A DNA stretch of 64,000 nucleotides from Arabidopsis thaliana (Eukaryota > Streptophyta > Magnoliopsida > Brassicales > Brassicaceae), in the NCBI RefSeq assembly GCF_000001735.4, contig NC_003071.7:2925001-2989000 (forward strand). The letters are read 5' to 3'. The position numbers and the translations under genes were made by a program. Below are positions 3,601-29,722 of this stretch, piece after piece. Within the stretch, counting starts at the first letter, position 1, and every line of letters begins with the position of its first letter. The notes below the pieces were generated by a model. It saw nothing but the letters and a program-made list of their open reading frames with translations, was not told where the DNA came from and did not search any database.

Positions 3601-5295
3601 TCTCAACTGCAGATCACGGTTGGCCCATCTCTGACTGCACCGCAGAAGGACTGAAAGTAATAATAATGCGACAGAGTTACCTTTCAGGATTTCTTTTCTG
3701 GTGGTAATTAGTTTTGTAATTCCTCTTCAGGCTGCTCTTTTGCTATCCAAAGTTCCCAAGGCGATTGTTGGTGAACCAATAGATGCAAAACGGTTATATG
3801 AAGCTGTTAATGTTATCATTTCTTTACAGGTTAGATTTGGTTTCTAATACAGATTGGTGCTTCGATCAGTCATATGTCGTCTTTCTGCTCTGTTGACCTT
3901 TTGTTTTTTAAATGCATATTTTGAAAACCAAAACAGTTTCCTTGTCTAATCAGCTGAAAATTTCTGATGTCAGAATGCAGATGGAGGCCTCGCAACATAT
4001 GAGCTCACCAGGTCATACCCTTGGTTAGAGGTATTGTCTGTGTGCCTAGATAATATATACTTTCTGTATCTCTGTGTCCAACACATATTTGCCTTAGTCC
4101 CCTTTGCTTGAGGTTTTAAGTGAAAAGTTTACTCATTTCTGTTGGCAGCTAATCAACCCAGCAGAAACCTTTGGCGATATTGTTATTGATTATCCGTAAG
4201 GCACTAGCATATTCCATTGATTGAATCATCTGGTTAATCTTATTTTATGTTTTGCAAATTTCTCTTGATGTGCAAGAATGGTTCTGTAGTTACGTGGAAT
4301 GTACATCAGCTGCTATCCAAGCTTTGATATCATTTCGAAAGCTGTATCCTGGTCATCGAAAGAAGGAAGTAGATGAGTGCATTGAGAAGGCGGTTAAGTT
4401 CATTGAATCCATTCAAGCAGCAGATGGCTCATGGTAAGTCTCTATTCATTATAAATCTATTTGCAGAATTACATATTTTCCTATATTTTATCTTTGTATC
4501 TTCTAGTTGGTTTCTTTTTGGTAACCTGTGATATTTCCCTAGGTATGGATCATGGGCTGTTTGCTTCACGTATGGTACGTGGTTTGGAGTGAAAGGGCTG
4601 GTAGCTGTTGGAAAAACATTGAAAAACTCTCCACATGTTGCTAAAGCTTGTGAATTTCTATTGTCGAAACAACAACCTTCGGGCGGCTGGGGAGAAAGCT
4701 ATCTTTCATGTCAAGACAAGGTTAATAATTACTTTGTATGTTCACTAAACTCTTACTTACTGCTCTACTTGATGAATCGTTTCTTTTTTACTTTTATGAA
4801 TAGGTCTATTCAAACCTTGATGGCAACAGATCTCACGTCGTGAATACAGCATGGGCTATGCTCGCACTCATTGGTGCTGGGCAAGTGAGTAAATTCCTTA
4901 AGAAACTTTGTACTTCAGTTCATCGTGCTGCAAGGCGGGGGGATTGCTCATTCTTGTCCTCTCTCTCTTTCCATTTACAATTTTATCTCTTTGTTTGTGT
5001 TCTTATTAGGCTGAGGTAGACCGGAAACCACTACACCGGGCTGCAAGATACTTGATTAATGCTCAAATGGAGAATGGTGATTTTCCACAACAGGTAACAA
5101 GTTGCATCAACCACATCATTGTTTGGATTTTCTCTTAGTTAACGGTTAAGTGATTATCTTGACTCTCTATATCAGGAAATAATGGGAGTCTTCAATAGGA
5201 ACTGCATGATAACATATGCCGCGTATCGAAACATTTTTCCGATATGGGCTTTGGGGGAGTACCGTTGTCAGGTATTATTGCAACAAGGAGAATGA
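621..5295 (+). CDS. CAS1: Cycloartenol synthase (oxidosqualene cyclase), 5' partial
   Basis: The enzyme cyclises 2,3-oxidosqualene to cycloartenol, the first committed step of plant sterol synthesis, at the endoplasmic reticulum. Exons seen: 621-806, 886-975, 1142-1336, 1440-1524, 2068-2234, 2491-2679, 2860-2973, 3327-3449, 3534-3656, 3731-3829, 3974-4030, 4149-4195, 4290-4433, 4543-4720, 4804-4884, 5010-5093, 5176-5295. They join in phase to 693 residues plus stop; exon 1 (about 66 codons) is outside the window. The catalytic acid motif DCTAE is present. Tyr, His and Ile fall at 410, 477 and 481 if the motif Asp is D483, the combination known to favour cycloartenol over lanosterol or amyrin products. 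QW-type repeats (for example [16 protein letters not shown]) are kept and the protein ends VLLQQGE. The reading frame is intact. The intron after 975 has a GC donor. Family assignment is certain; the specific name rests on residues and on recall of the Arabidopsis protein. Confidence 0.95.
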
Positions 5296-7270
5296 ATTAA
5301 GTGTTCAAATTAGTTATTTCTCTAGGGAAGGAACTGTGTAGCTTCCATGCTTTACTCTTTCCAAAGTTGTGTTATCCGTAATGGATCTGCTCTGATGGTT
5401 ACGTGAACCAATCTTTGTGTAATTGTTTCAAACTCAAATCTTGGTTGCAGATTTTGTTGGGTTCTCTTGAATACCCCATTTTAGGATAATGTCTTGTTTT
5501 GTGAAAACAGACATTTTTCTTGTATTTGTTTTTTTAATTCATGTTTCCCGCTTAGGTCGTGTCTCCGGTGGTTTCCCACTTTGCTCAAAATATTGGTTTT
5601 GACTGGTTGCTTTTACTAAGCAATTTTTTTCATCTAAAATAAGTTTTCCCTTGGATTCCTGGGATGATGCTCATTTAATTCCCCAAGTATGGTGTGGGCA
5701 ATTTTTTATTTCTAAATAGTCAATGTTTACAGAATATATAATATTAGTCAAATAAAACTTAATATACTTAGATAAGTCTCTAAATATATATTAAAGGCGG
5801 TTAGCCGGAATTTTTCTGTTTTTTTGTTTTATATGAATAATTTTCGATTTTAAACGGATACCTAGTTTCCGCTTTGCCGGAGTTTATTACCATCTTAGTT
5901 TGGATTGTTTTCCATCTAAGTTTGGTTTATTTTGTTCATCTTTCTACCAAAGCTAAATCCAAATTCCGCTATTTATAAGATTGGTTTCTTTCCTTTAACC
6001 GTAGCTTGGCTCTTCTCAAATGATTAGAGTAATATCTTCGCTAAAATTACTTCGTTATCATACGAAGTTGACCTCATATGATAGGTCAAAAGGCGGAGCT
6101 TCTATCTTTGAGCTTGAGTTGAAGCAAAAAAGATCTGAAAATTCTTCAATCTTACGAGACGGTTCCAATCTAAGAGGGCGGCAATACAACTGTAGAAAGA
6201 TCTATCAAGTGGTTATTTGGAGTAAAAGCTGATTTCATTGAAGAAACTTAGATCAATAAGGAATATCAGCTTCGGTGGTGGCGGTGAGCTGAACGGAGAT
6301 TGTGACGGAAGACGGTGAATATTGCAGATCCAATCTTTGTTGCTTTTCATCCACACACGTGTCTTACACCTGTCAAAATATGGGCTTAATTCTGAAATAT
6401 ATTTTATGTATTTTAATATGTAAAGTCCAGGTTGTTGGGCTTCCAGATAACCACTTGTAATGCCCATGAGCTTTGTTTTCCATATAAATAGATTTGGTCG
6501 ACAAAAAAAAAAAGATCAGTCTCTAAATTTTTTCCCAAATTAAAACCTAAGAACCCTAAAATCTAAAGTTAATATGTTTAATTTTTATTTTTGTAAAGAA
6601 CCGCAACTTAATATTGTTCAATCTCTATTTCTTCTCGAAACTTACCACAAAACATCGCAGCTAGCGGCCAAATCCACCCTCTCTTCTCCTCTGTCCAAAT
6701 CCTCTTTCTATTACCGTCTTCACGATCACTCGATACCATTAAAACATCACTTCATGGCGGAAAAAAAACTTTGTCAAGAAATTGTGAATATTTCTTCGAT
6801 TTTGAGAAAAATTTAGTCTTTTGGGTTCTTATGTTTTAATTTGGAATTTTTTTTTGGTTTATCAAGTTGTATTCCTCTATAGTTTCACCTATTAGAAAAG
6901 TAGAGTAAAACAAAGCAATTTTTCCTTCTAAAGTAATACATCCATAACGTAAATAAAAAAAAAAAGAAATTTGCGTGTTTGTTTTGGTCTTTAATACAAG
7001 ACTGTTTTATTGTTAAATCCAAGCCAACAACATCTACCAAAAACAATTTAAACTTCCCGTAAGTTAACACTATCTATCTCCTATAGGCTAGAGGAAACTA
7101 ACAAGAATTGAGCCGGAAAAAAAGGTAACATGAAATGGAGATGTTAGTATACCTTTTTCATTGTTTTGTTTTCTCCCATGCATGCTTGAGACTTTGAACA
7201 GATTATTATCACTTACAAGAAGACAAGTCATAAGATATAAGTAGACAAGACCAAAGAAAAGAAAATGGCT
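5296..7270. other. Intergenic, CAS1 3' flank
   Basis: The first few hundred bases after the CAS1 stop probably hold its 3' UTR. The remainder is AT-rich with scattered short ORFs (for example 6020-6232 and 6574-6816) that show no recognisable domain and no splice logic. I see no gene here. Confidence 0.6.
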
Positions 7271-7271
7271 G

Positions 7272-7680
7272 GGAGGTCGCCGGTAATCAACCAAGGACCA
7301 GATCTAGTGGAGTAGACTTCCTGAAGGAGAGACCACACCTGAAGTCTTTCTGATCTCTCTGGCTCTCCATACAAAAAGGTAGCATAAAAAGATTTACCCT
7401 TAGCAGTTATTTTTGTGTCCATAAAGTGAATATAGGAGCTGATAATTTCCACTTGTAAACTTGACCTCCAGAAAAGAGCTAAACCACCAGCAGCAGGAGA
7501 AAGGGGTGCAACCAAATGATTTGAGTTATTGTCTAGCCACTGAAGCGTTTGCAGGACATTTTCAGAGGTATTCTTGGTTTCCATGAGGAATAGAATGTCG
7601 GGAAATATCGATTTACGAATTTTTTTTAACCGCTGGACTGTCATGGGATTCCCCAACCCACAACAGTTCCAGCTTACTAT
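7272..7680 (-). pseudogene. LINE ORF2 endonuclease domain, 3'-truncated
   Basis: The minus strand from about 7680 reads IVSWNCCGLGNPMTVQRLK, the conserved start of plant LINE ORF2 endonucleases. FLMETKN, GGLALFWR, ATFLYGEP and GPWLITGD follow in the correct order. Endonucleases of this type nick genomic DNA to prime reverse transcription. The usual initiating methionine is not visible (the position reads TTA), and the frame leaves LINE homology after WLITGD at about 7275, where DFNEI would be expected. Only about 135 residues of a protein normally exceeding 1,000 remain, so it is non-functional. Confidence 0.75.
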
Positions 7681-7682
7681 CC

Positions 7683-9446
7683 TTAAGGAAGCGGGGCTAA
7701 TGGATTATGAAAATCCACTTTATTTTTCTGGGCTGCAGGAATTAAGAAAATCTTTGGATTTGCAGGTTTCTTCGATTTTGGACAGGCAGCCTTAGAGGAG
7801 GGGTTACCTCCTTGTAGAGCTGCAAAAGATGAAGGTAGATTAGATCCAGTTCCTTTCTTTGGTGAGTTCCTTACAAGATTTCTCTTTTGGCTTTTGGCTC
7901 CAATTAACTTTGAGGAGGAATTTGCAGGATTCTTTGAATTGGTTTTAGCCAGTGGTGGTCGACCTCTTCCTCTTTTCACCTGGACTACATGAGAACTAGT
8001 AGGTAGGGAAGGATCCTCCCTAACAGATACACGAGGCTCAGGGGAAGCAGGAAGGGCAAGTCCAATGGGGTCAGCACTGGAAATGGAAGCAGCGGCGGCT
8101 TCAATTATTTGGTCAGTTGTATTACTCATCAAGTTTCTAGCCTCGCCTTGAATAACTCTTTGTTTCCTAGCTGCGCTCTCAATGGGATCAACACACGTCA
8201 AGTATTAAATAGTGACTTCACGCAGTTCACCAAGGACTTGATCTTTGGAAGGTATGACAACTGGGGGGAAGAGACCTCAGAAAGTCTTTGATTCCAGTTA
8301 GAGAGAGGAGCAGGCAGGAGAGGTGGAGTTTGAGGGTCCGGGGAGAGGACATCTCTCTCAAGAGGGGGTCTTCTTGTTCTGGAAGAATCAGAGGTTTCCT
8401 GGGAAAATCTTGGTACATTTGAGTGTTTTTCTTGCCATTAGAGATTCCCCAGATTAGCAGAACCCGCACCATGAGGGTGGTTAGTGTGATAAACTTGAGC
8501 TTTAGAGCTAGGCCGTGCTCTATACCCTGAGGATAATAGTGAAACACTTCTTTGCGGAAAGACACTTCTAGACCTTTCTCCAGAGGGGAGGTTAGTTCTA
8601 TCCACCGCAGAATAATGTTTATGAGAAGAGGATCCGTGGCCCTGAGAGGAAGCATTAGGAGAGATCCCTCTACCATGGCTTTTGGATGCAACGAAGTTGT
8701 CTGCAGGGGTATAGTAATTCCTAGAGACACCACCTGAGCCTCGGGAATGAGTAGAGGTGGGCGGTTTAGATTTTTCTGAAGAAGAAATTAAACCTGGGCA
8801 ATCCTTAATGTCATGAGATAGTCTTAGACAATGGCGGCAGTGATTTTTCAGGTTTTTATAATCAAGAAGCACTAAGGCTTCACTACCATCAGGGAACTCT
8901 ACCACTATCTCTTTTGTTAGGGGTTGGAGTCCATTGATAAGCACTTTGAGTTTGACAGAAGAAGAAGAGATCTCCATATCCAAGATTTCACCAAGCTCTT
9001 CACTAATGGTTTTTAACATTTCCTCTTGCCAGTAATGTTTACGGAGACCTTGGAGTTCAATCCAAAAAGGCAGCATAGATGGAAAGGAGTCACAGAAAAC
9101 TGTCCCATTTTTGGAGAATGACCATCCATTGGTCATAATGGTAAGGTCTATTATCTAGAACCTTCTACATATCCTCTTCAAAATCAAATTTAAACTGGAA
9201 ACACCCTTTTCCCAGACCTGAGCCCACAACCTTTCCTTTGAGGTTCCATCTGTTGGAGAGGAAAGGAAAGAGAGACCAGAGACGTTGAGCCGCTGGATTA
9301 GTGAGTCGACCCATGAGAGTGAGAGCATTTGCTTTAATAAGCTCTGAAGTATCTAGGTCTAGAGCTCAGATTCGTTTGCGAGTTGGAGAGGAGTAGCCTC
9401 TTGCTAAACTTTTGCCTTTAAGGTGAGCATGGATTCTTGTACTCAT
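7683..9446 (-). pseudogene. LINE ORF1 (DUF4283 / CCHC zinc knuckle), broken
   Basis: The likely start is the ATG at 9446 (MSTRIHAHLKGKSL...). The N-terminal part carries the pattern usual for plant LINE ORF1 proteins, which bind nucleic acid and accompany the element RNA: a segment ending KVLDNRPYH(Y)DQW, then PFWIELQGLRKHYW, and a zinc knuckle CRHCLRLSHDIKDC (CX2CX4HX4C) read from near 8850. In-frame stops occur near 9360 and 9165, and the C-terminal region shifts frame between about 8440 and 8200. The low-complexity basic C terminus ends at 7683, close to the start of the endonuclease frame, as in intact LINEs. Confidence 0.72.
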
Positions 9447-9830
9447 GGTTAGGTTTGGGTAATAAATGAGAACATGGTAATAGTTGGGGGAAACGAACTT
9501 TCAAGGAGCAATAAATTTTCAGGAGCAGCCGGAGGAAGTTGCAGATAGGTTTAAACACAGTTCAACAGGGTTAAAACAGGGTTACCAGGATAGCAGAGGG
9601 AGGGGATATACCTGAAGGAGAGCAGATATATCAGATGGTAGCAAGAAGGAAGTTTCAGAGGGAGAAAACATCAGGTCCACGCTGGAGAAGTTCATCAGAA
9701 ACCTCGCAAACGCACCGGAAAAAGCTAGCCTGGCTAGGGACCGTTGGGTATTGCTAAAAATAGGAGGGAAAAGTGGTTGAGATCCGGTTAGTAGCAAGTA
9801 CCATACTTCTAATAGCCGTCTTGATTACAG

Positions 9831-11177
9831 TGCCTACTAGAATGACTCTCTAAGGGTGTAAAAAGACATGAAAGCTGGGGTTGAAATTTTTTATTACAGT
9901 TATGCCATTTAGATTTTAATTTTGTTTGTTTTCATTATTTATGTCTGTTTTAATTGAATATAATTATGAGAATTGAAAAGAATAAATATTTAATTATGTG
10001 GATATTGTAGACCTATTACATCTAAACATAATTACGACCACATATAAAACCTAATTTTGAGAGAGCCGATTAAGGGCGGCAAAAGGAGAAGCGATTTCCG
10101 ACGACGACTTGAGAGGCGGTATCCGGCGACGATTGTTGTTTAAATCCGACAACGAGAGGAGAAGCGAGTACGGAGGAAGACAGGAGAGTCGAGCTGATTA
10201 ATTAAGGGCGACTTTATGAGCCGAAGCTAGGAGCGATGGACTCTTGAAAGGAGGTTAGTTATTAACAACTAAGTTTTGGTAATATTAGTGTTAAGGAACC
10301 GAAATGCATTTATGTTGTCGGCTTTTGTGTATATGAAAGTTGTCGGAAAATGACGGACATAATGTCTTCTTATTTTAAGTTGATGAACACAATCTTATGT
10401 ATGTCATAAAATGCGATTGACGTATTCTTGAATATGTTGTTTGAGAAGCATTTGGGTGACGAAAGAGAATTAAGTGTTATGTTGTTTATAATTTGAAATT
10501 CGCGCAGTTGATTTGTACAGTAGACTTAAAAAATATAAGTTGTATGATGATAGAGGTTTTGAACTGATGGTAGACATAATGCGTATGTAAGTCTGTCTAA
10601 AAAAACTAATGCATTTGATTATAAAGAAGTTTAGGCCGTTAATGATATGTGGAACTTGAAGAAACAGAGTGTCTGAAGTTCAACAGGCGTGTCTGAAGCA
10701 ACACAGAGCAGAACAAAGGAACAGAGGAAGCGGAAAAGAAGCAGTTGCTTTTGCCAGCGTGGCATGTTGATTGGAGTGAAGAAAAGGCGTATCACTTTAG
10801 ACAAAGGAGACGAAGTCGTCAGACAGAGGACGTGGGCCTAGTGTCAAGATAATGATGAGGAGCTAGACTTGGACCTTCTAGATAAAGTGGAGCATCCTGC
10901 CTTTTCCGAGAAACTACATAAGAGAAGTTTCGGTCTCTTAGTAGAACTTGTTCTTGTGGGTTTTATTGGTGAGTGAACAAAGTGAGCACACGGTTGTTGT
11001 TGTGTTTGTGAGCTGGGTAGTTTTAGTATCTGACATGAGCAAATCAGGTTGTTGATGTTGCGTAACACTGTCCAAAGTTATCTGTGATTGATCAGTTTGA
11101 AAGTTGTTCTAATAAAGTGTGTTTATTGGAGTTGTGTTCTTTGTCTTGTCAAAGTACTTAGAGTTCTTTTACTACAA
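9831..11177 (+). other. Non-coding stretch including a probable 5' LTR end
   Basis: No gene is visible. The 3' end (TTACTACA, ending 11177) lies directly before a tRNA-Met primer-binding site, so the last several hundred bases are probably the 5' LTR and leader of the retrotransposon whose gag follows. I could not fix the left LTR edge and found no matching 3' LTR downstream in the window. A small direct repeat (GTGTCTGAAG...CAAC) sits near 10670-10705. Confidence 0.45.
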
Positions 11178-11179
11178 TT

Positions 11180-11191
11180 GGTATCAGAGCG
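11180..11191 (+). other. Retrotransposon primer-binding site (tRNA-iMet)
   Basis: The sequence TGGTATCAGAGC is complementary to the 3' end of plant initiator tRNA-Met and is the standard minus-strand priming site of Copia and many Gypsy elements. It lies two bases after the putative LTR end and about 50 bases before the gag ATG, as expected for an LTR retrotransposon. Confidence 0.8.
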
Positions 11192-11238
11192 GGTAACCAA
11201 TCTGAGATTAGTATATCTGAACAGGTTAGATCCTAATT

Positions 11239-13214
11239 ATGGAACCAACGGATGTTAGTACTGGTACAGGCAAGGTTTTACTGCTAGATACTAAGCGGTA
11301 TGGATACTGGAAAGTTTGTATGACACAAATCATTAGAGGCCAAGGTAAGATGCTTGGACTGTAGTAGAGGAAGGATGGGAACCTCCGTTTGATCTAACAG
11401 AAGATGGGTTCAAAATCACTAAACCAAAGGCGAATTGGACTGCAGAAGAGAAGCTTCAATCAAAGTTTAATGCAAGGGCTATGAAAGCTATCTTCAATGG
11501 TGTTGATGAAGACGAGTTTAAGCTTATTCAAGGGTGCAAGTCAGCGAAACAAGCGTGGGACACGTTACAAAAATCCCATGAGGGAACTTCGAGTGTAAAG
11601 AGAACAAGACTGGATCACATTGCTACTCAGTTTGAGTATCTCAAGATGGAACCAGATGAAAAAATAGTGAAGTTCAGTTCAAAGATAAGTGCTCTTGCGA
11701 ATGAGGCTGAGGTCATGGGAAAGACCTATAAAGATCAAAAATTAGTTAAGAAGCTGTTACGTTGTTTGCCACCGAAGTTTGCTGCCCACAAAGCAGTTAT
11801 GAGGGTTGCAGGGAATACTGATAAAATATCATTTGTTGATCTTGTGGGAATGCTCAAGTTAGAAGAAATGAAAGCTGATCAGGACAAAGTCAAACCGTCG
11901 AAGAATATTGCATTTAATGCAGATCAAGGCTCTGAGCAGTTTCAGGAGATTAAGGATGGAATGGCACTGCTAGCAAGGAATTTTGGGAAAGCTCTAAAAC
12001 GTGTAGAAATAGGTCAGAATCGTGACAGTACGCCCTGAAGCAATAAAGATGGAGAGAGATCACGTGGAAGATTCTCCAGATCTGAGAATGATGACTTAAG
12101 AAAGAAGAAGGAAATTCAATGCTATGAGTGTGGTGGTTTTGGTCACATTAAACCCGAGTGTCCAATCACCAAGAGAAAAGAAATGAAATGTCTTGAATGC
12201 AAAGGTGTGGGTCACACTAAGTTTGAATGTCCTAACAAGAGCAAACTTAAAGAGAAATCTTTGATAAGCTTCAGTGATTCAGAATCTGATGATGAAGGTG
12301 AAGAGCTGTTAAACTTCGTGGCGTTTATGGCAAGTTCTGACTCAAGCAAGTTTATGAGTGACACGGATTCTGATTGTGATGAGGAATTGAATCCCAAGGA
12401 TAAATACAGAGTGCTATATGATAGCTGGGTGCAACTAAGTAAGGACAAGCTGAAGCTGGTAAAGGAAAAGCTAACTCTAGAAGCAAAACTTGCTAATGTG
12501 AGCACAGAGGATAAGCAGAAACTGAGTGGAATCACTGTTGATGGAAATTCACAGGACTACTATCAAAAGAAACTTGACTGTCTTCAGAAAGAGTGTCACA
12601 GGGAAAGAGATAGAACTAAACTTCTGGAAAGAGAGTTGAATGACAAATACAAGCAGATCAGGATGCTCAACAAAGGGTTAGAAAGTCTAGACAAGATCTT
12701 GGCAATGGGCAGAACTGATTCTCAACAAAGGGGTTTGGGTTATCAAGGTTATACAGGAAAGATCAAAAAGGAAGAAGGAAGAGTCATCAACTTTGTCAGT
12801 GGTGGTTCAACAAGTGAAACTGTGGTGAGACAAAGCTATATTGAACCGAAGAAACAAGTAAAGTCACATGTTGAAATAAAAAGAGAATCTGTTGTGAGAA
12901 CAAGGATGGTGGGTGTGATTTGCTGCGATCATTGTGGTAAGAGATTTCATATGAGAGAACAGTGTTACAAATTCAAAGAGAAAGTCAGAACGCTGTGGAA
13001 TTTAGCAAAGTGCTTCATTGAGCCATCGAGATTCTGCACTGTGTGGATTAAGAAGAAAGATCTATATGGTGATATGGAAGCTGAAAGGTACAATCACAAG
13101 TTAGAAAGAATGTATGAAGAAGAGGAAATGCATTACGCCAGTTGCTGCAATCAGGTCAACAAAGAAATGCAAGACGAGGCCCGCAAAAAAGATGATTCAT
13201 TCGGATCAACATGA
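11239..13214 (+). pseudogene. Copia-type gag (UBN2-like) with three zinc knuckles, broken
   Basis: Gag forms the virus-like particle and binds element RNA. The ATG at 11239 gives MEPTDVSTGTGKVLLLD; one base appears lost near 11345, after which the frame resumes DAWTVVEEGWEPPFDL and the UBN2-like helical region (IFNGVDEDEFKLI..., LKLEEMKAD). A TGA interrupts at 12036, and the same frame continues to 13214. Three CX2CX4HX4C knuckles are visible: CYECGGFGHIKPEC, CLECKGVGHTKFEC and CDHCGKRFHMREQC. An acidic segment and a charged, probably coiled-coil segment lie between the second and third. No protease, integrase, RT or RNase H follows: the frame stops and plastid-like DNA begins. I recall a gag-like locus annotated close to CAS1 in Arabidopsis. 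Confidence 0.8.
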
Positions 13215-13832: not shown

Positions 13833-16104
13833 GAAATAAATGGATGGTGAATGCAAAGACCCAAAAGAAAAATTTATAAATTTATTTTTGTGATTCTGAT
13901 GAGCTGTTCACTCTTTGAAAGATATTTGACTTATTTTTAAACATTTTTGTTATTAATAGATCAATCCATCTGAGTCTTATATCTCACCTCCAAGAATCGT
14001 GAAAAATGGTATGTTTTTTCTTAAGTCTTTGGTTAAGAGAAACAGAAAAATTGCGTTAATGGTTGTTGAAATAGTAGCTTATATGTTTTGTATAACAAAT
14101 TTGGACAACGTTTAAGAAATACATTTTCGCTGGCGTTTTCATTCAAATCCAAGCCGTTTTGACTATGTGAGAAAGGTGCTTATGGAGATTATTGAAGGTT
14201 TTGATTTTCTTTCGTGTGTTTATATAGTCAAGTCACTTGTGAATAAAATGAATGTACCATCCTCTTTTTTGGTCAGAAAGGTTTTTATTTATTAACATTT
14301 TTAGGAGCATGAAATAAATAAACATATTAGATTTGGCACAATAATGTCTCGCCTTAATTGACGATGCATGGATAATGTTATGTGTATACCTTTGTGTGGA
14401 TATGAAGCGAAGACAGATGAGAGAGATGTGATTATTATCTAAATATATTTTTTTTTAAATATGCGAGGATTTGTAAAAAGTGAAGTATTCAAATTTGCAT
14501 TTTTGTGAAGAGAGATTGGCTACAACCTAAAAAGTCTTTCTACGACTAACATTTGAAAAACTATTCCGAAATTATTATGGTTTATACATCATGACTGATA
14601 CACATGATGGGAAGATTTAACATAGAGTAAAAAACGATGATATTACAAAGAAAATTCAATCAATTAGGCTTTTTTTTAGATTAGAACAACTCTCGTACAA
14701 ACATATATGTCATTAATGAAACATTTTTAGAAAAAACTATTGAAAAAGATTTAAGCTTATACATGTTTGAATGTCTGCTAGAGTTCATGCTTGTTATCAT
14801 GGAGCCACTTTCCCGTGACACACACAATCATTCCAGATCCAATTTTGAAACATATTTAACATGTATTCTTGAGAAAAAATATCGTATGACACATTGTCGC
14901 CTATTAAAAAGATGTCGTTTTTGAAAACTCAAAAACAATTATCTTGTATGGTGATTGTGTGCCCTTTGAATTGGTCATTTTTCCAGTTTCAGTAGTCCTA
15001 AATATGCAACGTAGTTGTGACTTCAAGTGTTTTAGCCACTACTCACTAAACTAAAACATCTCGCTTAGGATTCTAATATTGTGTGATTGTGAAATCATAT
15101 TTACTATTATTTTTTACTCTTACACATTAGAAATTATATGATTTTTGTTATAAAAATAGTGTCACAAAACAGTCACACTTTGTGACAATGTTGCGACGAC
15201 GTTGCAACTCTCGCAATTTTATTCATATATTCACCAATAGAAAATTTTAAATATGTTAAGTTTTAAGGTTTCTACAACGATTTGAAGTACATAGATGTTA
15301 AAAATCATTATAATACCAAAAAATTTGATTTATTTTTTATGTTTTAAACAATAATTCTAAGCTTACGTAATGTTATATGTGATGTGAACTAATGGTTTTT
15401 TGAATTTTCATAATTTTCTTTGCATTTCATGTATTTACTTATTAAATTGATTGATCTTGTTTAGTATTATGATTTCATTGATTTTAACCTTATAGATATA
15501 ACCTTTTGGATCTTAAACTTTAAAATTCATATGAATAGGGTTGTGACTCATAAAAATTCATCATAAAATATTAGCATTTTGCAACTATTCTAAGGAAAAG
15601 TTACAAACAAGTCATTACATACCAACATATATTTGGCTGAGTTGTGACGAACAACTGAGATTGAGACGATTGTGCTACCTTTTAGCAACCCTTGCAGTTT
15701 TTGTTAAGATATTAACCAACATAATATTGTTAATATGTTAAGTTTCAAGGCGTTGCACAAAAAAAAAAAGTTTCAAGGATTCTAAATTGATTTTAACTAC
15801 TATATCTACAAAATCATTACAATGGCAAAAAATCCCTTTAAAGTTTTTAATGTTTTAAACAAAATTCCTAAACTTACGTAACGATTATATGTGATGATAC
15901 TTATAATTTCTAAATTTCTAATTATTCTTACATTTCTTTTCTTTCTCATTAAACTGATTTATCTTGTTTAGTATCGTAATTTACATGACTATAACATTAT
16001 ACATAGATTTTATTTAGTTAGTAAGCTTTAAATTCATAGAAATATAGTTGTGACTCATAAACATTAGTCACAAAAGAGTAACACTTTATTATTACTTTAA
16101 AAAA
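13833..16104. other. AT-rich non-coding DNA with diverged repeats
   Basis: No coding potential is visible. From about 14985 it contains copies of a dispersed repeat rich in phrases such as GCAACGTAGTTGTGACTT and GTGACTCATAAA; see the repeat entries. A second, more diverged copy of the same unit runs from about 15735 to 16080, directly before the MULE. Confidence 0.6.
14985..15495 (+). repeat. Dispersed repeat, copy A
   Basis: It is about 500 bp and closely similar, in the same orientation, to 23485-23995. Shared blocks include GCAACGTAGTTGTGACTT, TTGCAACTCTCGC, CACCAATAGAAAATT and TTATATGTGATGTGAACTAA. The two copies bracket the MULE about 8.5 kb apart. It encodes nothing and I cannot assign it to a named family. 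Confidence 0.7.
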
Positions 16105-16345
16105 AAGGAAAAATATCAGAAAAATCGTCAACTTTCAAAAAAGAGACGAAAAACTCGTCAACTCACGAGACGTTGTTTTAATCACATACTTTTGGTTAAC
16201 CTCTCCAAAAAATACCAAAGTTTTGTTGACCGAGACAAATAAGTTATCGCGTTAAGTCTCTGTTAGTACACGAGAAACGGGGTTAATACTTCGTTAACGG
16301 TCACCGTTAAACCTAAACGACTTCGTCTCTTTAAAAACAAAACAA
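16105..16345 (+). repeat. MULE left terminal inverted repeat
   Basis: It begins AAGGAAAAAT and ends near AAAAACAAAACAAGCC. Its reverse complement aligns with 20560-20800 along its whole length, with blocks such as CTCCAAAAAATACCAAAG and AGAAACGGGGTTAATACTTC identical in both. In Mutator elements the TIR holds transposase-binding sites and promoter sequence. Here the GRF ATG lies 88 bases inside it. Confidence 0.9.
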
Positions 16346-16432
16346 GCCTCTGAAACCCCCAATTCAATTTTAGAATCTCAAACCCTAAATTTTCCAAATC
16401 TCTTCTTTTTCTTTTACATTCTCACTCTAACA

Positions 16433-16984
16433 ATGAGCTCAAGCTCTGTCACATCACGTGTTGCCAGAGAGCGTGGTGTTGCCGGAGAGCGTGGTGTGCC
16501 GTCGAAGTGTTTGTGTGGATCAGAAGTCACGATCTTTGTTTCAAAAACCCAAGAGAACCAAGGACGTCCATTCTTTCGTTGTGTTAGGAATAGAGATGTG
16601 AATACTTGGACAACCAAAAGAGATGTATGTAGAGGATAGAAATGAGTCGACATTTTTTTGACAAGCTAACAATGTATCTATGTGTTTGTGCATTAGGGTC
16701 ATTTGTTTAAGTGGGTAGAGGATCCCGTGTTTGAAGAAGTCGAAGATGCTTTACCAAGACTAGCCATCGTAGCAAATGAGATTAGCAAAGTTAAAGCAGA
16801 AACAAATGAGATGCTTAATCAGATACAAGAGCTGAAAGAAGAAGCCATAGCGAGGAAAAAGGAACTCGTCAAGTGTAAAGAGTGGTTGTATGTGTGTTTT
16901 CTGTTGCTTTGTGTAATCACAATTGTGGTTGCTTATGTTATGTTTGGTCAAGGGAACCAAAAGAAACTTTCAATTGGTTATTGA
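16433..16984 (+). CDS. GRF-type zinc-finger, coiled-coil, tail-anchored membrane protein, carried in MULE
   Basis: Two exons, 16433-16624 and 16697-16984, join across a 72-bp GT-AG intron into 159 residues with no stop. Residues 26-70 form a GRF-type finger: CLC at 26-28, NQGRPFFRC ending at Cys50, and GHLFKW at 65-70, where His66 may replace the fourth cysteine as in related plant proteins. GRF fingers bind nucleic acid, mainly single-stranded, in better-known proteins. Residues about 91-123 are a charged, heptad-like coiled coil; 127-147 ([21 protein letters not shown], one short of 22 residues) are a hydrophobic membrane anchor near the C terminus. It resembles proteins annotated uncharacterized At4g04775-like. 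It starts just inside the left TIR and is convergent with the transposase. It is open although the transposase is broken. Its role is unknown; an accessory role in transposition or silencing control is inference. Confidence 0.75.
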
Positions 16985-17219
16985 GTGTATGCAATCTTAT
17001 GTAACTTTTGTAATGTTGTATGGATTATAACTAATCGTTTGTAAGGTAATTTGAACTCAAAAGTTATGAAAATGCAACATTGAAACATGTCTTAATACAC
17101 TCTGAAACAAATTAGCAATGTCATAATACCAAACATGACAAAACAAAACATGATGAGTTATTTGGTTCTGAAACAAGAAAAAAAGAAAACAAAAAACAAA
17201 AGCTGCATCAACACATTGT

Positions 17220-20200
17220 TTAGCGGGAACATTCAAACCATGATCTCCATCCTCCGAGGTTGTCATTTCCACTTCCTCTATGTGTTCCACCTCTCTCCCA
17301 TCCGCTCTGTGCATTTCCTCTTCCTCTCTGTGTTCCAACTCTTTGTGATCTACCTCTGTTTGATCGTCCTCTCTGTGATGGTTGGAAAGCTTGGGATGGC
17401 GCTACATATGGAGGTTGAGAGGTTGCTCCCTGAGAAGCTTGAGATGGTTCTACTTGTGATGTTGCTCCAAGAGATGTTTGAGATGGTGTAGGTGCTCCTT
17501 GGGAAGGTTCAGATGGTTCTCGTTGCAATGGTTGTCCTTGACCGAACAATATATTCCTCGGCTCCTGCAGCCACAACATAATCTCATTAATCAACCACCT
17601 TATGCACATGATAATTTTAAAGATGACATGAAATAAACCTGATCTTTTCTTGATCGACCCCTAGATCTTTTTGGTGGAGGTGCAACAATCTCATTCTTAC
17701 ACCCTTGTTTGTTGTGTCCTTCTTGCTGGCAATTAGAACAGGTCATGACTCGATGTATTCGTGATAACATGGTATTGGAGCTAGAAGCTGTTTCAAACTG
17801 AGACTTCCTCCTTGCATGATTGTTTGGTCTACCTGGATTACCTCTTATGCAAGGAGGTGGCAGCACTCCCAACCGGTTCACTCTAGGCCATAGAAGCTTG
17901 CCCTGTACAGGCGTAATGCCATCATAGTATGTCAGCTGCCACATTCTAGTTGTGTACCAATCCACAACATAATCTTCCACCTTCTCACGATTCTCTATAA
18001 TAACCGAGGCAGCGTGAATACATGGAATTCTAGTCATCTGCCACTTTATGCAACCGCAAGTGTGGCTGTTCATTCGACTGTGAAGTCCATATCGCCACAT
18101 TTGATCTGATACTTGTTATGTCTGGCCATCCATCTTTCACAACCTTGTGCACGAGCAATCATCTTCTTTATCTTAGCATGAGCTCTTTTGGTGAATTGAC
18201 TCTTCAGTCTCTCTACTATTACATACCTCTTTTGATTCTGCACCATACATTGCCGCCTAATATCTTCCAACATATCAAGTAGAGGCTTCCTTCTTGCTTG
18301 TCTGATAGTTCTGTTGAAAGATTCACTAAGATTATTGAGGTTGTCATTGTAGCAACTTCCTATCCTGACGTAAGCTCGTGACCATGTCCTCGGATTGGTC
18401 TTCAACAGAGACTCATAAGCGCTTGGATTGTAATTCTTCAGTTCAACCATATGGTTAGTGAATTATCCTTCAGTGTAACTCCTAACAATCTTCTAGAATA
18501 GTCGATGTAACTCCATGTCATGACTATTCCTTTTCCAGTTGTCCATAATGTGCCTAGCACATTACTTATGTTCAGCTTGCGGGATAACAGTATGAATAGC
18601 TTTTACCAAACCCTGAAAATGCATGATACAAATAAGAATGTCAAACAACTAAAACATCAAAACAAACATCCATATAAGTATTAAACCAAGAGATTCTCAC
18701 CAATTGCTTGTCTGATATGACAGCTACATTACTCCCATCTCCTAACCCTAAAGAAGAAGAGAGCATCTTAAGAAACCAGTCCCAGTTATCATCATTCTCA
18801 ATTTCAATTACAGCCCATGCTATGGGAACTATCCTATTATCTCCATCTCTTCCTGTAGTAGCTCGTAGATGTCCTTTTACATCCCATTTAAGGAATGCAC
18901 TATCTATCCTTATTATAGGCCTACATGTGTTCTTCCAAGAGTCTCTTTGCGATTTAAAACAGATAGAGAGTCGCAAAAACCTTGGTAAGCTGTCTATGGT
19001 TGTTCCTGGAGTTGTCTCAATCTCAAATTTGGTCTCAGGATTTGATCAAAAAATCTCTGCTTGGTAGTCCCAAATCCGAGCAAAATGGTCATCGTGAGTA
19101 GCTTTCCTTTCCATCAAGATCTTTGTCTTCGCCTTTGAACATTAATCTTCTGTGACTACAAGATTATACTCCCTATGAATACTAACCATCTCTTGCTTAG
19201 TAATTTTTGGATTCTTCCTCAGCCTCTCCCTATACAACCATGCAATTGTCCCTTACTTCACCATCTTGCTGTAACCTGACCTCACACATACATGCTTATC
19301 ATCGTATATCATCAGTTGCATCTTATGAGTCTTCTTGTCATACATGCTGTAGCATCTCCATGGACACTTCACGTCAGTAGAAGAGCGCTTTGCACCAATT
19401 CTCAGACTTTGTGATTTATACAGCTTGATATCATATCTAGTCTTCAGAGAGTACCTTAAGACAGCTATCTTGAATTCTTCAGGACCATTGAACGTTTTCC
19501 CCAATCTCAGAAGCACTTCAAGATCTTCGGCTTCAGGAGCAGCAACACCTTCTTCTTCAGGACCTAGTTCATCATCACTGTCAGCCAAAGGCTCTGGAAT
19601 CCTCTCATCGTCCCATATCTCTTCTCCACTGTCAACATCAGTGTCCCTTGCATCGCCATATTCTCTTGCACCAATACCAAACCCTGCTTCAAAATCATCG
19701 CAATGTTCCTCCTCTAGACCTCCATCCATATCGTCTTCACCAACACTGCCACCCACATTGTCTTCACCAACAATCCCACCCACATTGTCATCACCAACAT
19801 TCCCACCCACATTGTCTTCACCACATGTTCCACCCATATTGTCTTCATCTATAGTAACACCCACATTGTCTTCATCAACGATTCCACGGCCATTGTCTTC
19901 AACATAAGGTTCACAGTAACGTTCAGGAACAGCTTCAATCCCCACTTCACCCACATTGTCTTCTTCCTCGCAGTCTTCATCGCCGATAACCTCACAATCA
20001 TCTCCACTCACACAATCGCGATCTTCTTCTTCTTCTTCGTCACGACTCTTCCTTTTTTTTCTTCTTCTCTTTTTGTTCATGTTGTTTCTGTTGAGGAACT
20101 GGGTTTTCCTCTTGTAGAATCGACACCGCCTCAATCACTGTTTCTTCTGGAGTTCGATTAGTCACTGTTTCTTCACGGGTTTCATTTATCTCCATTTCTT

Positions 20201-20429
20201 CTTGGTTTTGATTAGTCTCCGTTAATTCTGGGTTTCTATTCGTCGCGGTTTCTTCTGGGATCTGATTTGTCGCGGTTTCTTTTGGGTTTTAATTTGTCTC
20301 CAGTTCATCAGAGATCTCAAAAACTTCTAGTGGTCGATTCGAAATATTTGCTCTGTTAGCTTCGCCAACAACAGCCATTAGCCTCCGCGACCGACGAGGA
20401 TTCCAGTTTCCTCCCCGCGTCTTCGCCAT
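17220..20429 (-). pseudogene. MULE transposase (mudrA type), decayed
   Basis: Minus strand, from ATG at 20429. An acidic N-terminal region holds six 9-residue repeats. A MuDR DNA-binding-like segment (KTFNGPEEFKIAVLRYSLK, then KCPWRCYSM) follows. The catalytic DDE-type core has IRIDSAFLKWDVKGHL and, after GRDGDNRIVPIAWAV, the second acidic motif VISDKQ. A SWIM zinc finger (CGCIKWQMTRIPCIHAA), a CCHC knuckle (CSNCQQEGHNKQGC) and a Gly/Arg/Ser-rich tail ending at 17220 complete it. Probable introns are 18613-18700 and about 17567-17639. Breaks: a TAA soon after the start (near 20310), a frameshift near 20120, TAA at 19253 and 19142, a frameshift near 19050, and further stops around 18450-18570. 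Domains are complete in order, so the element was once autonomous. Confidence 0.88.
19737..19898 (-). repeat. 27-bp coding minisatellite in the transposase
   Basis: Six tandem 27-bp units, each with a version of CCACCCACATTGTCTTCA, encode an acidic 9-residue repeat close to EDNVGGNVG on the minus strand. Units differ by several substitutions but no frameshift, so the array is old and was kept in frame. Confidence 0.8.
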
Positions 20430-20559
20430 CGGGATCAATTGCTAAGAGATTGAGAGAATTTGAGAATTTTCTCTTTTAGGGTTAGGGATTGGTTTCTAAT
20501 CGATTTGGGAAATTTTAGCAGACTGTGAATCAAGCGACGACGTTTCTCTCGTTTTTGGC

Positions 20560-20800
20560 TCGTTTTGTTTTTGACAAAACGATGTCGTTTAGGTTCAACG
20601 ATGCCCGTTAACGAAGTATTAACCCCGTTTCTCGCGTACTAACAAAGACTTAACGCGATGACTAATTTGGCTCGGTCAACAAAACTTTGGTATTTTTTGG
20701 AGAGATCAACCAAAAGTATGTGATTAAAACGACGTCTCGTGAGTTGGCAATTTTTTCGTCTCATTTTTGAAAGTTGGTGATTTTTCTGCCATTTTTCCCC
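20560..20800 (-). repeat. MULE right terminal inverted repeat
   Basis: Inverted partner of the left TIR. Read on the minus strand it begins GGGGAAAAATGGCAGAAAAA. It lies upstream of the transposase, whose ATG is at 20429, so it should supply the transposase promoter. Confidence 0.9.
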
Positions 20801-22423
20801 ATTAAAAAACAACACTACACTTACTTACCCTTCTTATTTCTCATTGGCTGATCTTAAATGACAAGGAACACCTAAGGGCCATCTTACACCGTCGACAAAT
20901 TCTATCCAACAGACTAAATCATCTCAATATTTCCTTTCTCTCTCGCTATTGTTTATGTTATTTTCTATAATCAAATTTTTCTCACCTTCTCTCTTTCTCA
21001 ATGTATCCTCTCCATCAAGTTCATGTGAAATCATGAAACCCAGAAGACTAAATCATTTTTCATTTACTCAATGATTACTAGAAGGTTAGTTCTCTCTTTA
21101 CACAATAAATTTGTTATGTGTTTTGATTATTTCTTTGGTAGATCAAAGAATTTGTTATTTGTATTTTAGGTTTCATTGGTAGATATGAAGAATCAATTTG
21201 TTATAGATGATTGCAAATCTGAAGAACTAGCGCCACCAGTACCACATCTGAAAGTCTCCACAAATTCACCACCAACACATGTCAACTTGAATCGTCCACT
21301 GGCGCACCTCAAAACCTCTTGACACCATCACATCCCAGACCCTCTGGCCACCGCCATGGTTTTGTTGCCCCACGCCTATCGTCGCTCCATCGCTCCATCA
21401 ATGTCGATATCAATATTTAATAAATCAATTGATATATGTTATTGTATTTATGTGTTTGTTATGATTTTTAAAAATAGAAAATTATATTTATTTCATATTT
21501 CCTTATTTGTTTTTATTTTTTCTATTTGTTAGTTAATTTTTTCAAAAAAATTTTAATAGTTTTTCACTAAGAAGTCGCTAATATACGATTTTAGATACTG
21601 TCACAATTTAGTCTCAATATATGATTACTAATATGTATCTCTAAACCATCGCTAATATACGACCACATAAGTCAGTCTCAAAAACCGTCACAAATATGAG
21701 ACGTTATTGCGACCATTTTATTTAGTGACCGTTTTTAGGGATCAATATGGATAGTCTCAAAGTAGTCGGAAAATATCCATATGTGCCAGCTGCTTCTTTG
21801 TAAGCATCTAACAAATAACCATATGGAGTATCAGGCCCACAGCTTTTACTCATTTTCTTCACCTTTGCCTCCTCCTTTATAAGTGAAGAAAGCTCTGTTT
21901 TCCCTACAAAAATAAATTAAATCAACTAATTTATCCTTACATAACTCCCAAAATCAACTAATTTAAAGACCAAAAAGATCTTCTTACATAGATCTCCTAA
22001 AATTAACTCATTTTAACGACCACCAAGATTTTCCTACATAAAACAGTATTTAGTACTCAAAAGAAAAAAAAATAAGGTTGGCGAAACCTACTTTTTGTGA
22101 GAAGAGTGATTGCTACTGGATGAATAATAACATTTAATGTCTCAATATCCATGATTTGAACATTGATGTTCTCCTTTAACTTCGAAATCATTTCCAATGT
22201 TGGTAAGCCTTTGAACGGAACCATCATCTCTCGGGATCAAAATTATGTTGGAGACCGTGTTGATGAAAGAAGGAAGTCGGTGAGCAAGGAATATGGTGTT
22301 TTAGCTCAAGAGTTTTAGGAATTTGAAATAGTGATATTGTTGTTAGCAAATAATTAAACTATGAACATATTGGGTATTTATTACGTCCATCATTTTACAA
22401 AAGCAAACAAAAATTATATATTT

Positions 22424-28604: not shown

Positions 28605-29722
28605 CTAAACTTGCAGTGATCTGAATTCCAAAGGAACCGAGGTCAAACTTGGAAGATGGACACATTGAGAAAACCCAAGAGAGACAGAATCTATTTGAAT
28701 CTTCTTGCAGAAGTCTCCCCTCGCAATAAAGATGCAACCCACTCCAGTTTGATTGTCGTCACAGCACAGGATAAGGGTCATGTCATGGATGAAGTAACTA
28801 ATATCAGAAAGCTGATGGAATAGCGAGGGAAAATCAGGTATTGACAGTGTCATCAAGTTTAACCACACCACATTATTACTAGAGTTAATCATGTCATTTG
28901 TTACCCAAATCTCTGTATTACTTGATATACGAGATTGCTTTAACAATGCAAACTGATCGCCCTTAAATACAGTGAGGACAAGTTTATCTCGTAAGCCAGA
29001 AACATGCTTCCCACAAGGAAGGAGACAAAAGTGCATGGATATTTCTGTGGAGAAATCAAAGCTTCCGAGAAAATGCTCACGAGTATCTTCATTGTAAGCA
29101 GTCCAATACAAATTTCCATTCAAGGACACATATTCACCTCGACCTGCCAGCATTGGCCATTCCGGGGAATCAATGAACTTAAACGCTTGAGACGCACATT
29201 CAAAGATCGCAAATCTGTGGCCGATTTTCAGTGTAGTGTCATAGAAACGACTAAAATACCCAAAGATCTTGTAATCCTTTTCGGGTTTACAAGCATCGTA
29301 TCCTACACCGCAAAAACGGAAATCTCTGTCCTCCTTATACTCGATCCACCCAACCTGTCTTAACCATGGATTCCAAATGGTAACCCCTTGGTTCCAAAAG
29401 TCACGAAACAATAATCCATCGCAAGCCGTGATCCTGGTAAATGCCCACTTCTCAGCCTTAAAATGAAATTGACAGGCTAGCTCACGCACCTCTATCTTCG
29501 GATCAAAGTCGTCCAGGCCGATGGTTCCTATCGAATAAATCTTGGATTCGGGCAGGATGATAAATTGGGGACGTGCACAACCCAAGCTTTTCTTGATGAA
29601 CCATTTGTCGTTGAGAAGATCGTTCAGTGTTTACATACGGATCTTACCCGAACAAGGGATCCAGGTGGAAGCCGACACAGTATCTCTTCCTCCAACTCCC
29701 ACGGAAGCTTCCCCGACGCCAT
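28605..29722 (-). pseudogene. F-box protein with F-box-associated domain, one-base frameshift
   Basis: F-box proteins select substrates for SCF ubiquitin ligases. From the ATG at 29722 the minus strand reads MASGKLPWELEEEILCRLPP, then VRVRSVCKH, a typical F-box. At 29624-29626 a TGA appears where Trp is expected (CACTGAACGAT instead of CACTGGAACGAT). In the next frame the protein continues through LGCARPQFIILP to the end at 28605, about 326 residues of F-box-associated domain (CDGLLFRDF, VTIWNPWLRQVGWIEY, GNLYWTAY, EIWVTNDM). A single missing G therefore separates the two halves; apart from this the gene is open. It could be a recent pseudogene, a sequencing error, or a polymorphism. Confidence 0.8.

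What the first reader, a model, noticed from the sequence alone, without database searches (positions are those of the whole stretch)
16105..20800. MULE that keeps an intact GRF zinc-finger membrane-protein gene beside a dead transposase
Seen: 240-bp TIRs, a near-perfect 9-bp duplication, a transposase with several stops, and a two-exon GRF, coiled-coil, tail-anchor ORF with clean splice sites. Known: some plant MULEs carry second genes (for example anti-silencing factors in VANDAL elements, Ulp1 genes in Kaonashi). Inference: the GRF gene is an element-borne accessory factor, or has been taken over by the host, since it outlived the transposase. A membrane-anchored nucleic-acid finger is an odd cargo and could act at the nuclear envelope.
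Basis: partly seen in the sequence, partly recalled or inferred. Interest (0 to 1): 0.75.

Follow-up and report, generated by a model that had tools for sequence, protein, structure and literature searches.

The report
Transposon zinc-finger helper gene family
A jumping gene in what looks like the thale cress genome carries a small zinc-finger gene with a predicted membrane anchor; the gene recurs beside many related jumping genes and is a likely distant relative of VANB, an unexplained gene of a well-studied one.

Summary
The element (16105-20800) has 242-nt TIRs (90%), an 8-of-9 target-site duplication, a MULE transposase with at least six stops and a frame change, and an intact two-exon GRF zinc-ribbon / coiled-coil / C-terminal TM gene (159 aa; identical to At2g07090). 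The gene is element-borne: 31 of 47 GRF loci in the own genome have a MULE transposase hit within 8 kb, downstream and convergent (0.8 expected, at most 5 in 2000 shifted sets). At C1:16.66 Mb an intact GRF gene and an apparently intact three-exon transposase lie between TIRs. The family evolves under purifying selection (median pairwise dN/dS 0.30). Relatives occur in Ulp1-bearing (Kaonashi-like) MULEs, and GRF and transposase trees conflict. It is probably remotely homologous to VANB21, the gene of unknown function of VANDAL21. That the GRF gene 'outlived' the transposase is no evidence for host use: its smaller size explains it (7 of 11 intact, 5.6 expected). Most likely it is a trans-acting transposition cofactor in the mudrB/VANB role, with the TM tethering it to a membrane (inferred). 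Ten searches of an open-access library showed no paper linking GRF fingers to MULEs. New variant of a known kind.

The parts
16096..16104 (.). left target-site duplication TTTAAAAAA
   Evidence: 8 of 9 match to 20801-20809
16105..16348 (+). left terminal inverted repeat
   Evidence: 242-nt arm, 90% complementary to the right arm; related TIRs elsewhere in the genome
16433..16624 (+). GRF gene exon 1 (residues 1-64); zinc-ribbon ligands C26, C28, C50
   Evidence: identical to At2g07090; C26, C28, C50 invariant in A2
16625..16696 (+). GRF gene intron, phase 0
   Evidence: donor GAT|GTATGT, acceptor GTGCATTAG; same donor position in relatives C1:16.66, C1:17.84, C5:9.70
16697..16984 (+). GRF gene exon 2: fourth ligand H66 in GHLFKW, coiled coil about residues 74-127, stop
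16886..16942 (+). predicted C-terminal transmembrane segment (residues 128-146), followed by a 13-residue tail ending KKLSIGY
   Evidence: Kyte-Doolittle 2.81 over 19 residues; most of the 19 proteins of A2 end in GY or GH
17220..20429 (-). MULE transposase gene, three-exon layout as in the relative at C1:16.66 Mb, broken by stops and frame changes; convergent with the GRF gene
19256..20134 (-). open piece with MuDR DNA-binding domain (PF03108) and acidic 9-residue repeats
18641..19045 (-). open piece with MULE catalytic domain (PF10551)
17600..18115 (-). open piece with SWIM zinc finger (PF04434) and a weak CCHC-like knuckle
20557..20800 (-). right terminal inverted repeat
20801..20809 (.). 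right target-site duplication ATTAAAAAA

Best explanation
The element is a decayed two-gene MULE. Its GRF gene belongs to an old family of element-encoded accessory genes (GRF zinc ribbon, long coiled coil, usually a C-terminal membrane anchor). In TIR-MULEs the gene lies convergent with the transposase, each gene starting just inside a TIR, as mudrB does in maize MuDR (recalled layout); in VANDAL elements its probable remote homologue, without anchor, is VANB. Shown: the structure, the genome-wide pairing, purifying selection, presence beside an apparently intact transposase, and sequence links to VANB. Inferred: the protein acts in trans as a transposition cofactor. Its zinc ribbon would bind single-stranded or transposase-bound element DNA or RNA, the coil would dimerise it, and the tail anchor would hold the complex at a membrane contiguous with the nucleus (ER / inner nuclear envelope).
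For: Pairing: 31 of 47 GRF loci have a MULE hit within 8 kb downstream and convergent; shifted control mean 0.83, max 5 in 2000 sets. C1:16.66 Mb has an intact GRF gene, an apparently intact transposase and TIRs. Related elements have TIRs, some ending in GGGAAAAATG, with matching flanks, e.g. GAAGCTATATT on both sides at C5:11.27 Mb. dN/dS: median 0.30 in the 60 of 78 pairs with finite dS under 2; 9 of the window's 12 pairs have a finite estimate, 0.17-0.37. TM in 16 of 16 GRF proteins tested, chosen from 37 models. VANB: hhalign probability 92%, score 43.8 against at most 31.3 in 200 column shuffles (88%, E 3.3e-6); an A. lyrata VANB homologue hits Pfam GRF at E 1.7e-4; five loci are reached from both families; a phase-0 intron in the same loop. 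For a cofactor rather than an anti-silencer: the transgene lacking VANA21 and VANB21 still demethylates (PMC5735166, passage).
Against: No functional data. Pfam scores of the 159-aa protein (24.4 bits) and of the A. lyrata VANB homologue (22.0) lie below the GRF cut-off of 25.9, and VANB21 itself does not hit the GRF model. The VANB link is remote and VANB21 has no TM. 16 of 47 GRF loci lack a convergent MULE hit. Two of the 13 closest transposase relatives (C1:13.42, C3:14.64 Mb) have no GRF hit within 8 kb. Zinc-ribbon confidence in the structure model is low (pLDDT about 50).
Confidence: 0.55

Rival explanations
1. Counter-silencing factor: the membrane-anchored zinc ribbon interferes with small-RNA production or RdDM at the ER or nuclear envelope, as VANC counters silencing by another route.
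For: Anti-silencing second genes exist in Arabidopsis MULEs (VANC; PMC5735166, PMC10398659, abstract starts and passages). Relatives of the gene occur in Ulp1-bearing elements, whose KIU genes are said to act on related elements (PMC13317346, passages).
Against: VANA21 and VANB21 are dispensable for VANDAL21 demethylation (PMC5735166, passage), which speaks against a direct role of the VANB homologue in that form of anti-silencing. No methylation or small-RNA data here.
Confidence: 0.25
2. Host take-over: At2g07090 has been recruited as a host gene after its transposase died.
For: The ORF is intact beside a badly broken transposase; on the window branch of exon 2 there are 3 synonymous and 2 nonsynonymous changes, against 2 and 10 on the branch of its interrupted sister C3:13.38.
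Against: Fisher one-sided p 0.12; survival of a 159-codon gene has p 0.13 from lesion density alone, and 7 of 11 intact against 5.6 expected over related loci, p 0.24. No population or expression data were tested.
Confidence: 0.08
3. Passenger: a captured host gene (transduplication) without a role in transposition.
For: MULEs capture genes. Some loci with a divergent transposase (C3:14.10, C3:14.13, C4:2.15 Mb) carry a TM-type GRF copy with a shared frame change inside its zinc ribbon, which looks like a capture that decayed and was then copied.
Against: One layout in several transposase clades, intact copies at distant loci and dN/dS about 0.3 are not expected of a passenger.
Confidence: 0.09
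4. Host GRF genes that happen to lie in MULE-rich DNA.
For: 16 of 47 GRF loci have no convergent MULE hit within 8 kb; 11 of the 19 loci found only by the PF06839 model have no MULE hit near (counted from its list of 66).
Against: The local-shift control keeps regional MULE density and gives 0.83 convergent pairs against 31; TIRs enclose both genes at several loci.
Confidence: 0.03

Closest known systems
VANB21 (At2g23490) of VANDAL21 / Hiun
   Same: Element-encoded second gene of a MULE; CxCG...[FY][FY]xC...H zinc-ribbon pattern, then W and EEV, long helix; two exons with a phase-0 intron in the Cys3-His4 loop
   Different: No TM segment; on the strand of its transposase and 3' of it (10 of 18 VANB loci); remote sequence similarity only
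mudrB of maize MuDR
   Same: Second gene convergent with the transposase gene (layout of mudrB recalled); PMC6446971 says mudrB is of unknown function and apparently required for integration (passage)
   Different: No sequence comparison with MURB was made; no GRF zinc finger known to me in MURB (recalled)
Kaonashi / KIU (Ulp1) MULEs
   Same: In 10 of the 12 Ulp1-GRF pairs that I examined within 12 kb, Ulp1 lies upstream of the GRF gene on its strand; the GRF gene is intact in four of those 10 (C2:10.59, C3:12.11, C4:5.53, C2:5.20)
   Different: Divergent transposase (about 33% identity in the MULE domain); the window element has no Ulp1 hit listed; no TIR pair found at C2:10.59 Mb
'Uncharacterized protein At1g43920 / At4g04775-like' GRF-type proteins of Brassicaceae
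   Same: Same family by profile search: 419 proteins at E <= 0.001, the 120 listed almost all from Brassicaceae where a name is given
   Different: Annotated as uncharacterised proteins or 'transcription factor GRF family'; no MULE origin stated in the names seen
VANC anti-silencing proteins
   Same: MULE-encoded non-transposase protein
   Different: VANC carries DUF1985 and DUF287 (PMC5735166; found in the VANDAL21 locus); neither was hit in the GRF protein

Membership tests
Mutator-like element (MULE) with TIRs | MULE-type DDE transposase | tested here: met
   PF10551 27.7 bits (cut-off 27.6), PF03108 31.3 (25), SWIM 27.8 (19.6) in pieces
Mutator-like element (MULE) with TIRs | long terminal inverted repeats | tested here: met
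   242 nt, 90%
Mutator-like element (MULE) with TIRs | about 9-bp target-site duplication | tested here: met
   8 of 9 identical; 0.05% of flank pairs match as well
GRF zinc finger (PF06839) | Pfam gathering score 25.9 bits | tested here: inconclusive
   29.8 bits for the 150-aa splice form, 24.4 for the 159-aa annotated form; relative P0035 28.8
GRF zinc finger (PF06839) | conserved CxC...C...C/H ligands | tested here: met
   C26, C28, C50, H66 invariant in 19 sequences
Tail-anchored membrane protein | TM segment near the C-terminus | tested here: met
   Hydropathy peak 2.81, 13 residues after it; only the highest peak was computed
Tail-anchored membrane protein | inserts in a membrane with its N-terminus in the cytosol or nucleus | not testable with these tools
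   needs an experiment
VANB family | sequence homology | tested here: met
   hhalign 88-92%, above 200 of 200 column shuffles; shared bridging loci; remote, so likely rather than certain
VANB family | same strand as the transposase and no TM | tested here: not met
   convergent, with TM; so called a homologue, not a VANB
mudrB | convergent second gene starting inside a TIR | tested here: met
   GRF ATG 85 bp from the inner end of the left TIR, transposase ATG about 130 bp from that of the right TIR; the mudrB layout is recalled
mudrB | sequence homology to MURB | not tested
   MURB sequence not fetched
Kaonashi (KIU) MULE | Ulp1 peptidase gene in the element | tested here: not met
   no PF02902 hit listed inside the element or the window (its list was cut short)
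VANC | DUF1985 / DUF287 domains | tested here: not met
   not among the Pfam hits

The most novel reading that the evidence does not exclude
GRF/VANB genes are one ancient family of transposon helper proteins shared by TIR-MULEs, Kaonashi elements and VANDALs, exchanged between transposase lineages. The membrane-anchored form reveals a membrane-tethered (nuclear-envelope or ER) step in plant MULE transposition that VANB performs without an anchor; many Brassicaceae 'uncharacterised GRF-type proteins' are in fact these helpers.
Probability: 0.3. Interest if true: 0.82.

Novelty: new variant of a known kind. Interest (0 to 1): 0.64.

Why it matters
It gives a family and a testable biochemical idea to VANB, the gene of unknown function in a well-studied mobile plant MULE. 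It shows that a zinc-ribbon gene with a predicted membrane anchor is a recurrent, selected second gene of MULEs. It also warns that many plant genes named 'At1g43920-like', 'At4g04775-like' or 'transcription factor GRF family' may be transposon genes. The conflict between the GRF and transposase trees means helper genes move between MULE families, which bears on how such elements gain and lose autonomy. The 16.66-Mb element on C1, with both genes apparently intact, makes the helper question directly testable.

Tried and rejected
Host domestication inferred from survival of the ORF: rejected as evidence, because gene length accounts for it. The 150-aa splice form as the true product: rejected because relatives and At2g07090 use donor 16625. 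A solved-structure match by sequence: the best hits are coiled coils, none a GRF ribbon among the 21 listed. Structure models: GRF model pTM 0.27, VANB homologue model pTM 0.33; only the order strand-strand-long helix agrees. I ran no fold search because zinc-ribbon confidence is low. Co-divergence of GRF and transposase: rejected; holding the 8 GRFs of divergent-transposase loci as one clade costs 99.5 log units, AU p 8e-14. Caveats: the groups were named after seeing the transposase tree, several branches are unresolved, the program warns of long branches, and C4:2.15 was too short for the transposase tree and was placed by its weak MULE match alone. In one misplaced group (C3:14.10, C3:14.13, C4:2.15) the GRF copies are broken, so that transfer may be a mere capture. 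My first reading of those copies as carrying a deletion was wrong; one search shows a shared frame change. Failed or superseded steps: wrong frame; start one base off, no intron found; redone; too strict; redone; stopped with an error after its useful output.

Literature: ten searches showed no paper linking GRF fingers or DUF730 to MULEs. The narrow ones were complete: searches (1 paper; 1; 7; 0; 2), all unrelated by title and not read. The broad ones listed 12-20 of 37 to 11,376 papers, so a paper further down could be missed. Most subscription papers, among them Hoen et al. 2006 on Kaonashi (recalled only), are not held. 'Unreported' therefore means not found in these searches.
Full report
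What is there. The window is C2:2925001-2989000 of a 119.66-Mb genome in 7 contigs. Its size, and the exact match of the GRF protein to At2g07090 of Arabidopsis thaliana, point to that species. The element runs from 16105 to 20800 between TIRs of 242 nt that are 90% complementary, with flanking 9-mers alike at 8 of 9 places. The GRF gene starts 85 bp inside the left TIR and runs inward; the transposase starts about 130 bp inside the right TIR and runs toward it; the two stops are about 235 bp apart. The transposase has its DNA-binding, catalytic and SWIM domains in separate open pieces, with 6 in-frame stops and 1 frame change in a 550-residue core against the relative at C1:16.66 Mb. The GRF gene has no lesion. 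Its product is 159 aa: zinc-ribbon ligands C26, C28, C50 and H66, a long helix, a TM segment at 128-146 and a short tail ending in GY.

Is the GRF gene part of the element? A protein search of the own genome gave 78 GRF matches, merged to 47 loci. Three transposase searches, each of which scored only the best 150 candidates and the first of which did not list all its matches, gave 208 loci after merging by hand-copied lists. Of the 47 GRF loci, 31 have a MULE hit within 8 kb that lies downstream and on the other strand, 1 has a hit in another arrangement and 15 have none. Moving each GRF locus by 20-300 kb and giving it a random strand, 2000 times, gave 0.83 such pairs on average and at most 5. 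With PF06839-only loci added it is 36 of 66, against 1.1 (at most 6). From the MULE side, 50 of 208 loci have a GRF or VANB hit within 8 kb. Of 13 loci whose MULE domain is at least 57% identical to the window's, 11 have a GRF hit nearby; C1:13.42 and C3:14.64 do not.

Anatomy of relatives. Pairs of TIR arms of about 140-355 nt on either side of both genes were found at C1:4.33, C1:5.91, C1:16.66, C1:29.47, C2:5.86, C3:11.79 (one arm reaching the edge of the fetched stretch), C5:9.70 and C5:10.57 Mb, and around a deleted derivative at C5:11.27 Mb with GAAGCTATATT on both sides. No pair was found at C3:13.38, C1:17.84 or C2:10.59 in the stretches held (14 stretches tested, the window's and a TIR-only element included). 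Of 24 GRF loci modelled, 11 have an uninterrupted full-length gene: C1:4.33, 5.91, 16.66, 17.84, 29.47; C2:2.94 (window), 10.59; C3:12.11; C4:5.53; C5:9.70, 10.57. One search modelled 15 further loci, mostly divergent or truncated; C2:5.20 and C1:12.14 are clearly full length. At C1:16.66 Mb the three transposase exons are open, so an apparently intact transposase and an intact GRF gene stand side by side. I take that locus to be At1g43920, from gene-number order (recalled, not from a call).

Selection and decay. Among 13 GRF coding sequences (one truncated), 60 of 78 pairs have a finite dS under 2, with median dN/dS 0.30; 9 of the window's 12 pairs give a finite value, 0.17-0.37. Seven of the eight youngest pairs give 0.4-0.9, and one with hardly any synonymous change gives 4.1, as expected if copies drift after landing. 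The claim that the GRF gene outlived the transposase was tested with lesion density in the transposase core as the clock. Twelve loci were scored; C1:13.42, which has no GRF hit, was dropped. For the window copy P(no lesion in 159 codons) is 0.13; over the 11 loci 5.6 intact GRF genes are expected and 7 are seen, p 0.24. The window copy's own branch over 84 codons of exon 2 has 3 synonymous and 2 nonsynonymous changes, its interrupted sister at C3:13.38 has 2 and 10; the difference is not significant (p 0.12). So the gene was selected while the elements were active; for this copy today the data do not decide.

Links to Kaonashi elements and conflict of trees. GRF loci with a longer gap (mostly about 4.4 kb) sit beside a divergent transposase, about 33% identical in the catalytic domain. 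A Ulp1 search put a Ulp1 gene near many of these. I picked 13 Ulp1 hits by eye from that list because they lie near GRF loci; 12 are within 12 kb of one, and in 10 of the 12 Ulp1 is upstream of the GRF gene on the same strand. That is the Kaonashi/KIU kind as I understand it; a review says KIU is one of three genes of such elements (PMC13317346, passages). In the GRF tree the genes from divergent-transposase loci fall in at least two places inside the TIR-MULE genes, and forcing them together is rejected (AU p 8e-14). The GRF gene therefore seems to have moved between transposase lineages. One of the two groups (C3:14.10, C3:14.13, C4:2.15) has a shared frame change inside the zinc ribbon. At C4:2.15, C2:6.07 and C4:5.95 Mb a second, VANB-like match lies close by; that transfer may be simple capture. 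In the Ulp1 group, four young intact copies give pairwise dN/dS 0.4-0.9.

VANB. VANB21 is At2g23490 of VANDAL21 (PMC10398659, passage). The fetched VANDAL21 locus holds a DUF1985 and DUF287 gene, hence VANC, and an open 793-aa MULE transposase, hence VANA. The small two-exon gene between them I take to be VANB by elimination and gene order. Its first exon ends after CPCGG...RYYQCEKFK; its second has MHIRKLWDKAMEEEV. A profile of 17 GRF proteins hits its two exons only weakly, though they rank first and second in that locus (E 0.046 and 0.071). Profile against profile gives 88% (E 3.3e-6), or 92% with score 43.8 against at most 31.3 in 200 column-shuffled controls. The Pfam GRF model hits an A. 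lyrata VANB homologue at E 1.7e-4, below its cut-off (22.0 of 25.9 bits), and VANB21 itself not at all. One VANB locus (C4:5.571 Mb) is also hit by PF06839, below its cut-off. The A. lyrata protein also reaches C3:5.282, C5:10.789, C4:10.174, C4:2.157 and C4:5.955 Mb (E 0.002-0.04), which GRF queries reach too. Both genes have a phase-0 intron in the loop between the third Cys and the His, though not at the same aligned residue. I judge homology likely (about 0.8). Of 18 merged VANB loci, 10 have a MULE hit upstream on the same strand, 0.33 expected, at most 4. VANB21 lacks the TM.

How it most likely works. The transgene that lacks VANA21 and VANB21 still causes sequence-specific loss of methylation (PMC5735166, passage), so VANB is not needed for VANC's anti-silencing. 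A role in the transposition reaction itself, as reported for mudrB (PMC6446971, passage), is the simplest reading for VANB and by homology for the GRF genes. A zinc ribbon that binds nucleic acid (GRF domains of repair enzymes bind ssDNA: recalled), a dimerising coil and a tail anchor suggest a tethered complex at the ER or nuclear envelope. This step is inferred, with no data here.

Known or new. A survey of MULEs lists further motifs and second ORFs such as PMD, FAR1 and SET, and its main text does not contain the term GRF (PMC6446971, section 6 read and term search). Ten searches showed no paper that makes the link (limits under Tried and rejected). The protein family itself is in databases as 'uncharacterized protein At1g43920' or 'At4g04775-like' and 'GRF-type'; where a source names the organism, nearly all of the 120 listed of 419 hits are from Brassicaceae, with one from Orobanche minor. 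The element is an ordinary MULE; the new points are the identity, spread and probable VANB kinship of its second gene.

Noticed in passing
window 19722-19901 and 20140-20298: Two arrays of 27-bp units in the transposase N-terminus; the first encodes acidic 9-residue repeats.
   Followed up: no
G000 C2:6076453, C4:2157740, C4:5955584: Loci that seem to carry two GRF-type genes: a VANB-like match and, close by on the other strand, a TM-type relative; the TM-type copies modelled at C2:6.07 and C4:2.15 share the same break in the zinc ribbon.
   Followed up: partly
G000 C3:12457377-12458168 (L004, L006): A short element of about 0.8 kb made of little more than two TIRs related to the window's (76-77%): a likely non-autonomous derivative.
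   Followed up: no
G000 C5:9.25, C2:6.88, C1:19.59 Mb: A more distant set of GRF genes convergent with MULE transposases 44-48% identical to the window's; the two modelled far enough (C5:9.25, C2:6.88) also have a C-terminal TM, so the GRF family looks deeper than the window's own clade.
   Followed up: partly
window 11349-12035: Copia-type gag piece (PF14223).
   Followed up: no
window 28608-29630 (-) and 32555-33712 (+): Open frames with an F-box-associated (FBA_1) domain, the second also with an F-box.
   Followed up: no
window 44733-45752 and 48838-49632: A DUF4283 / zinc knuckle piece and an RNase H-like (RVT_3) piece of what may be a decayed LINE.
   Followed up: no
window 40258-40981: AT-rich tandem arrays with units of about 11-114 bp, many of 21-32 bp.
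   Followed up: no
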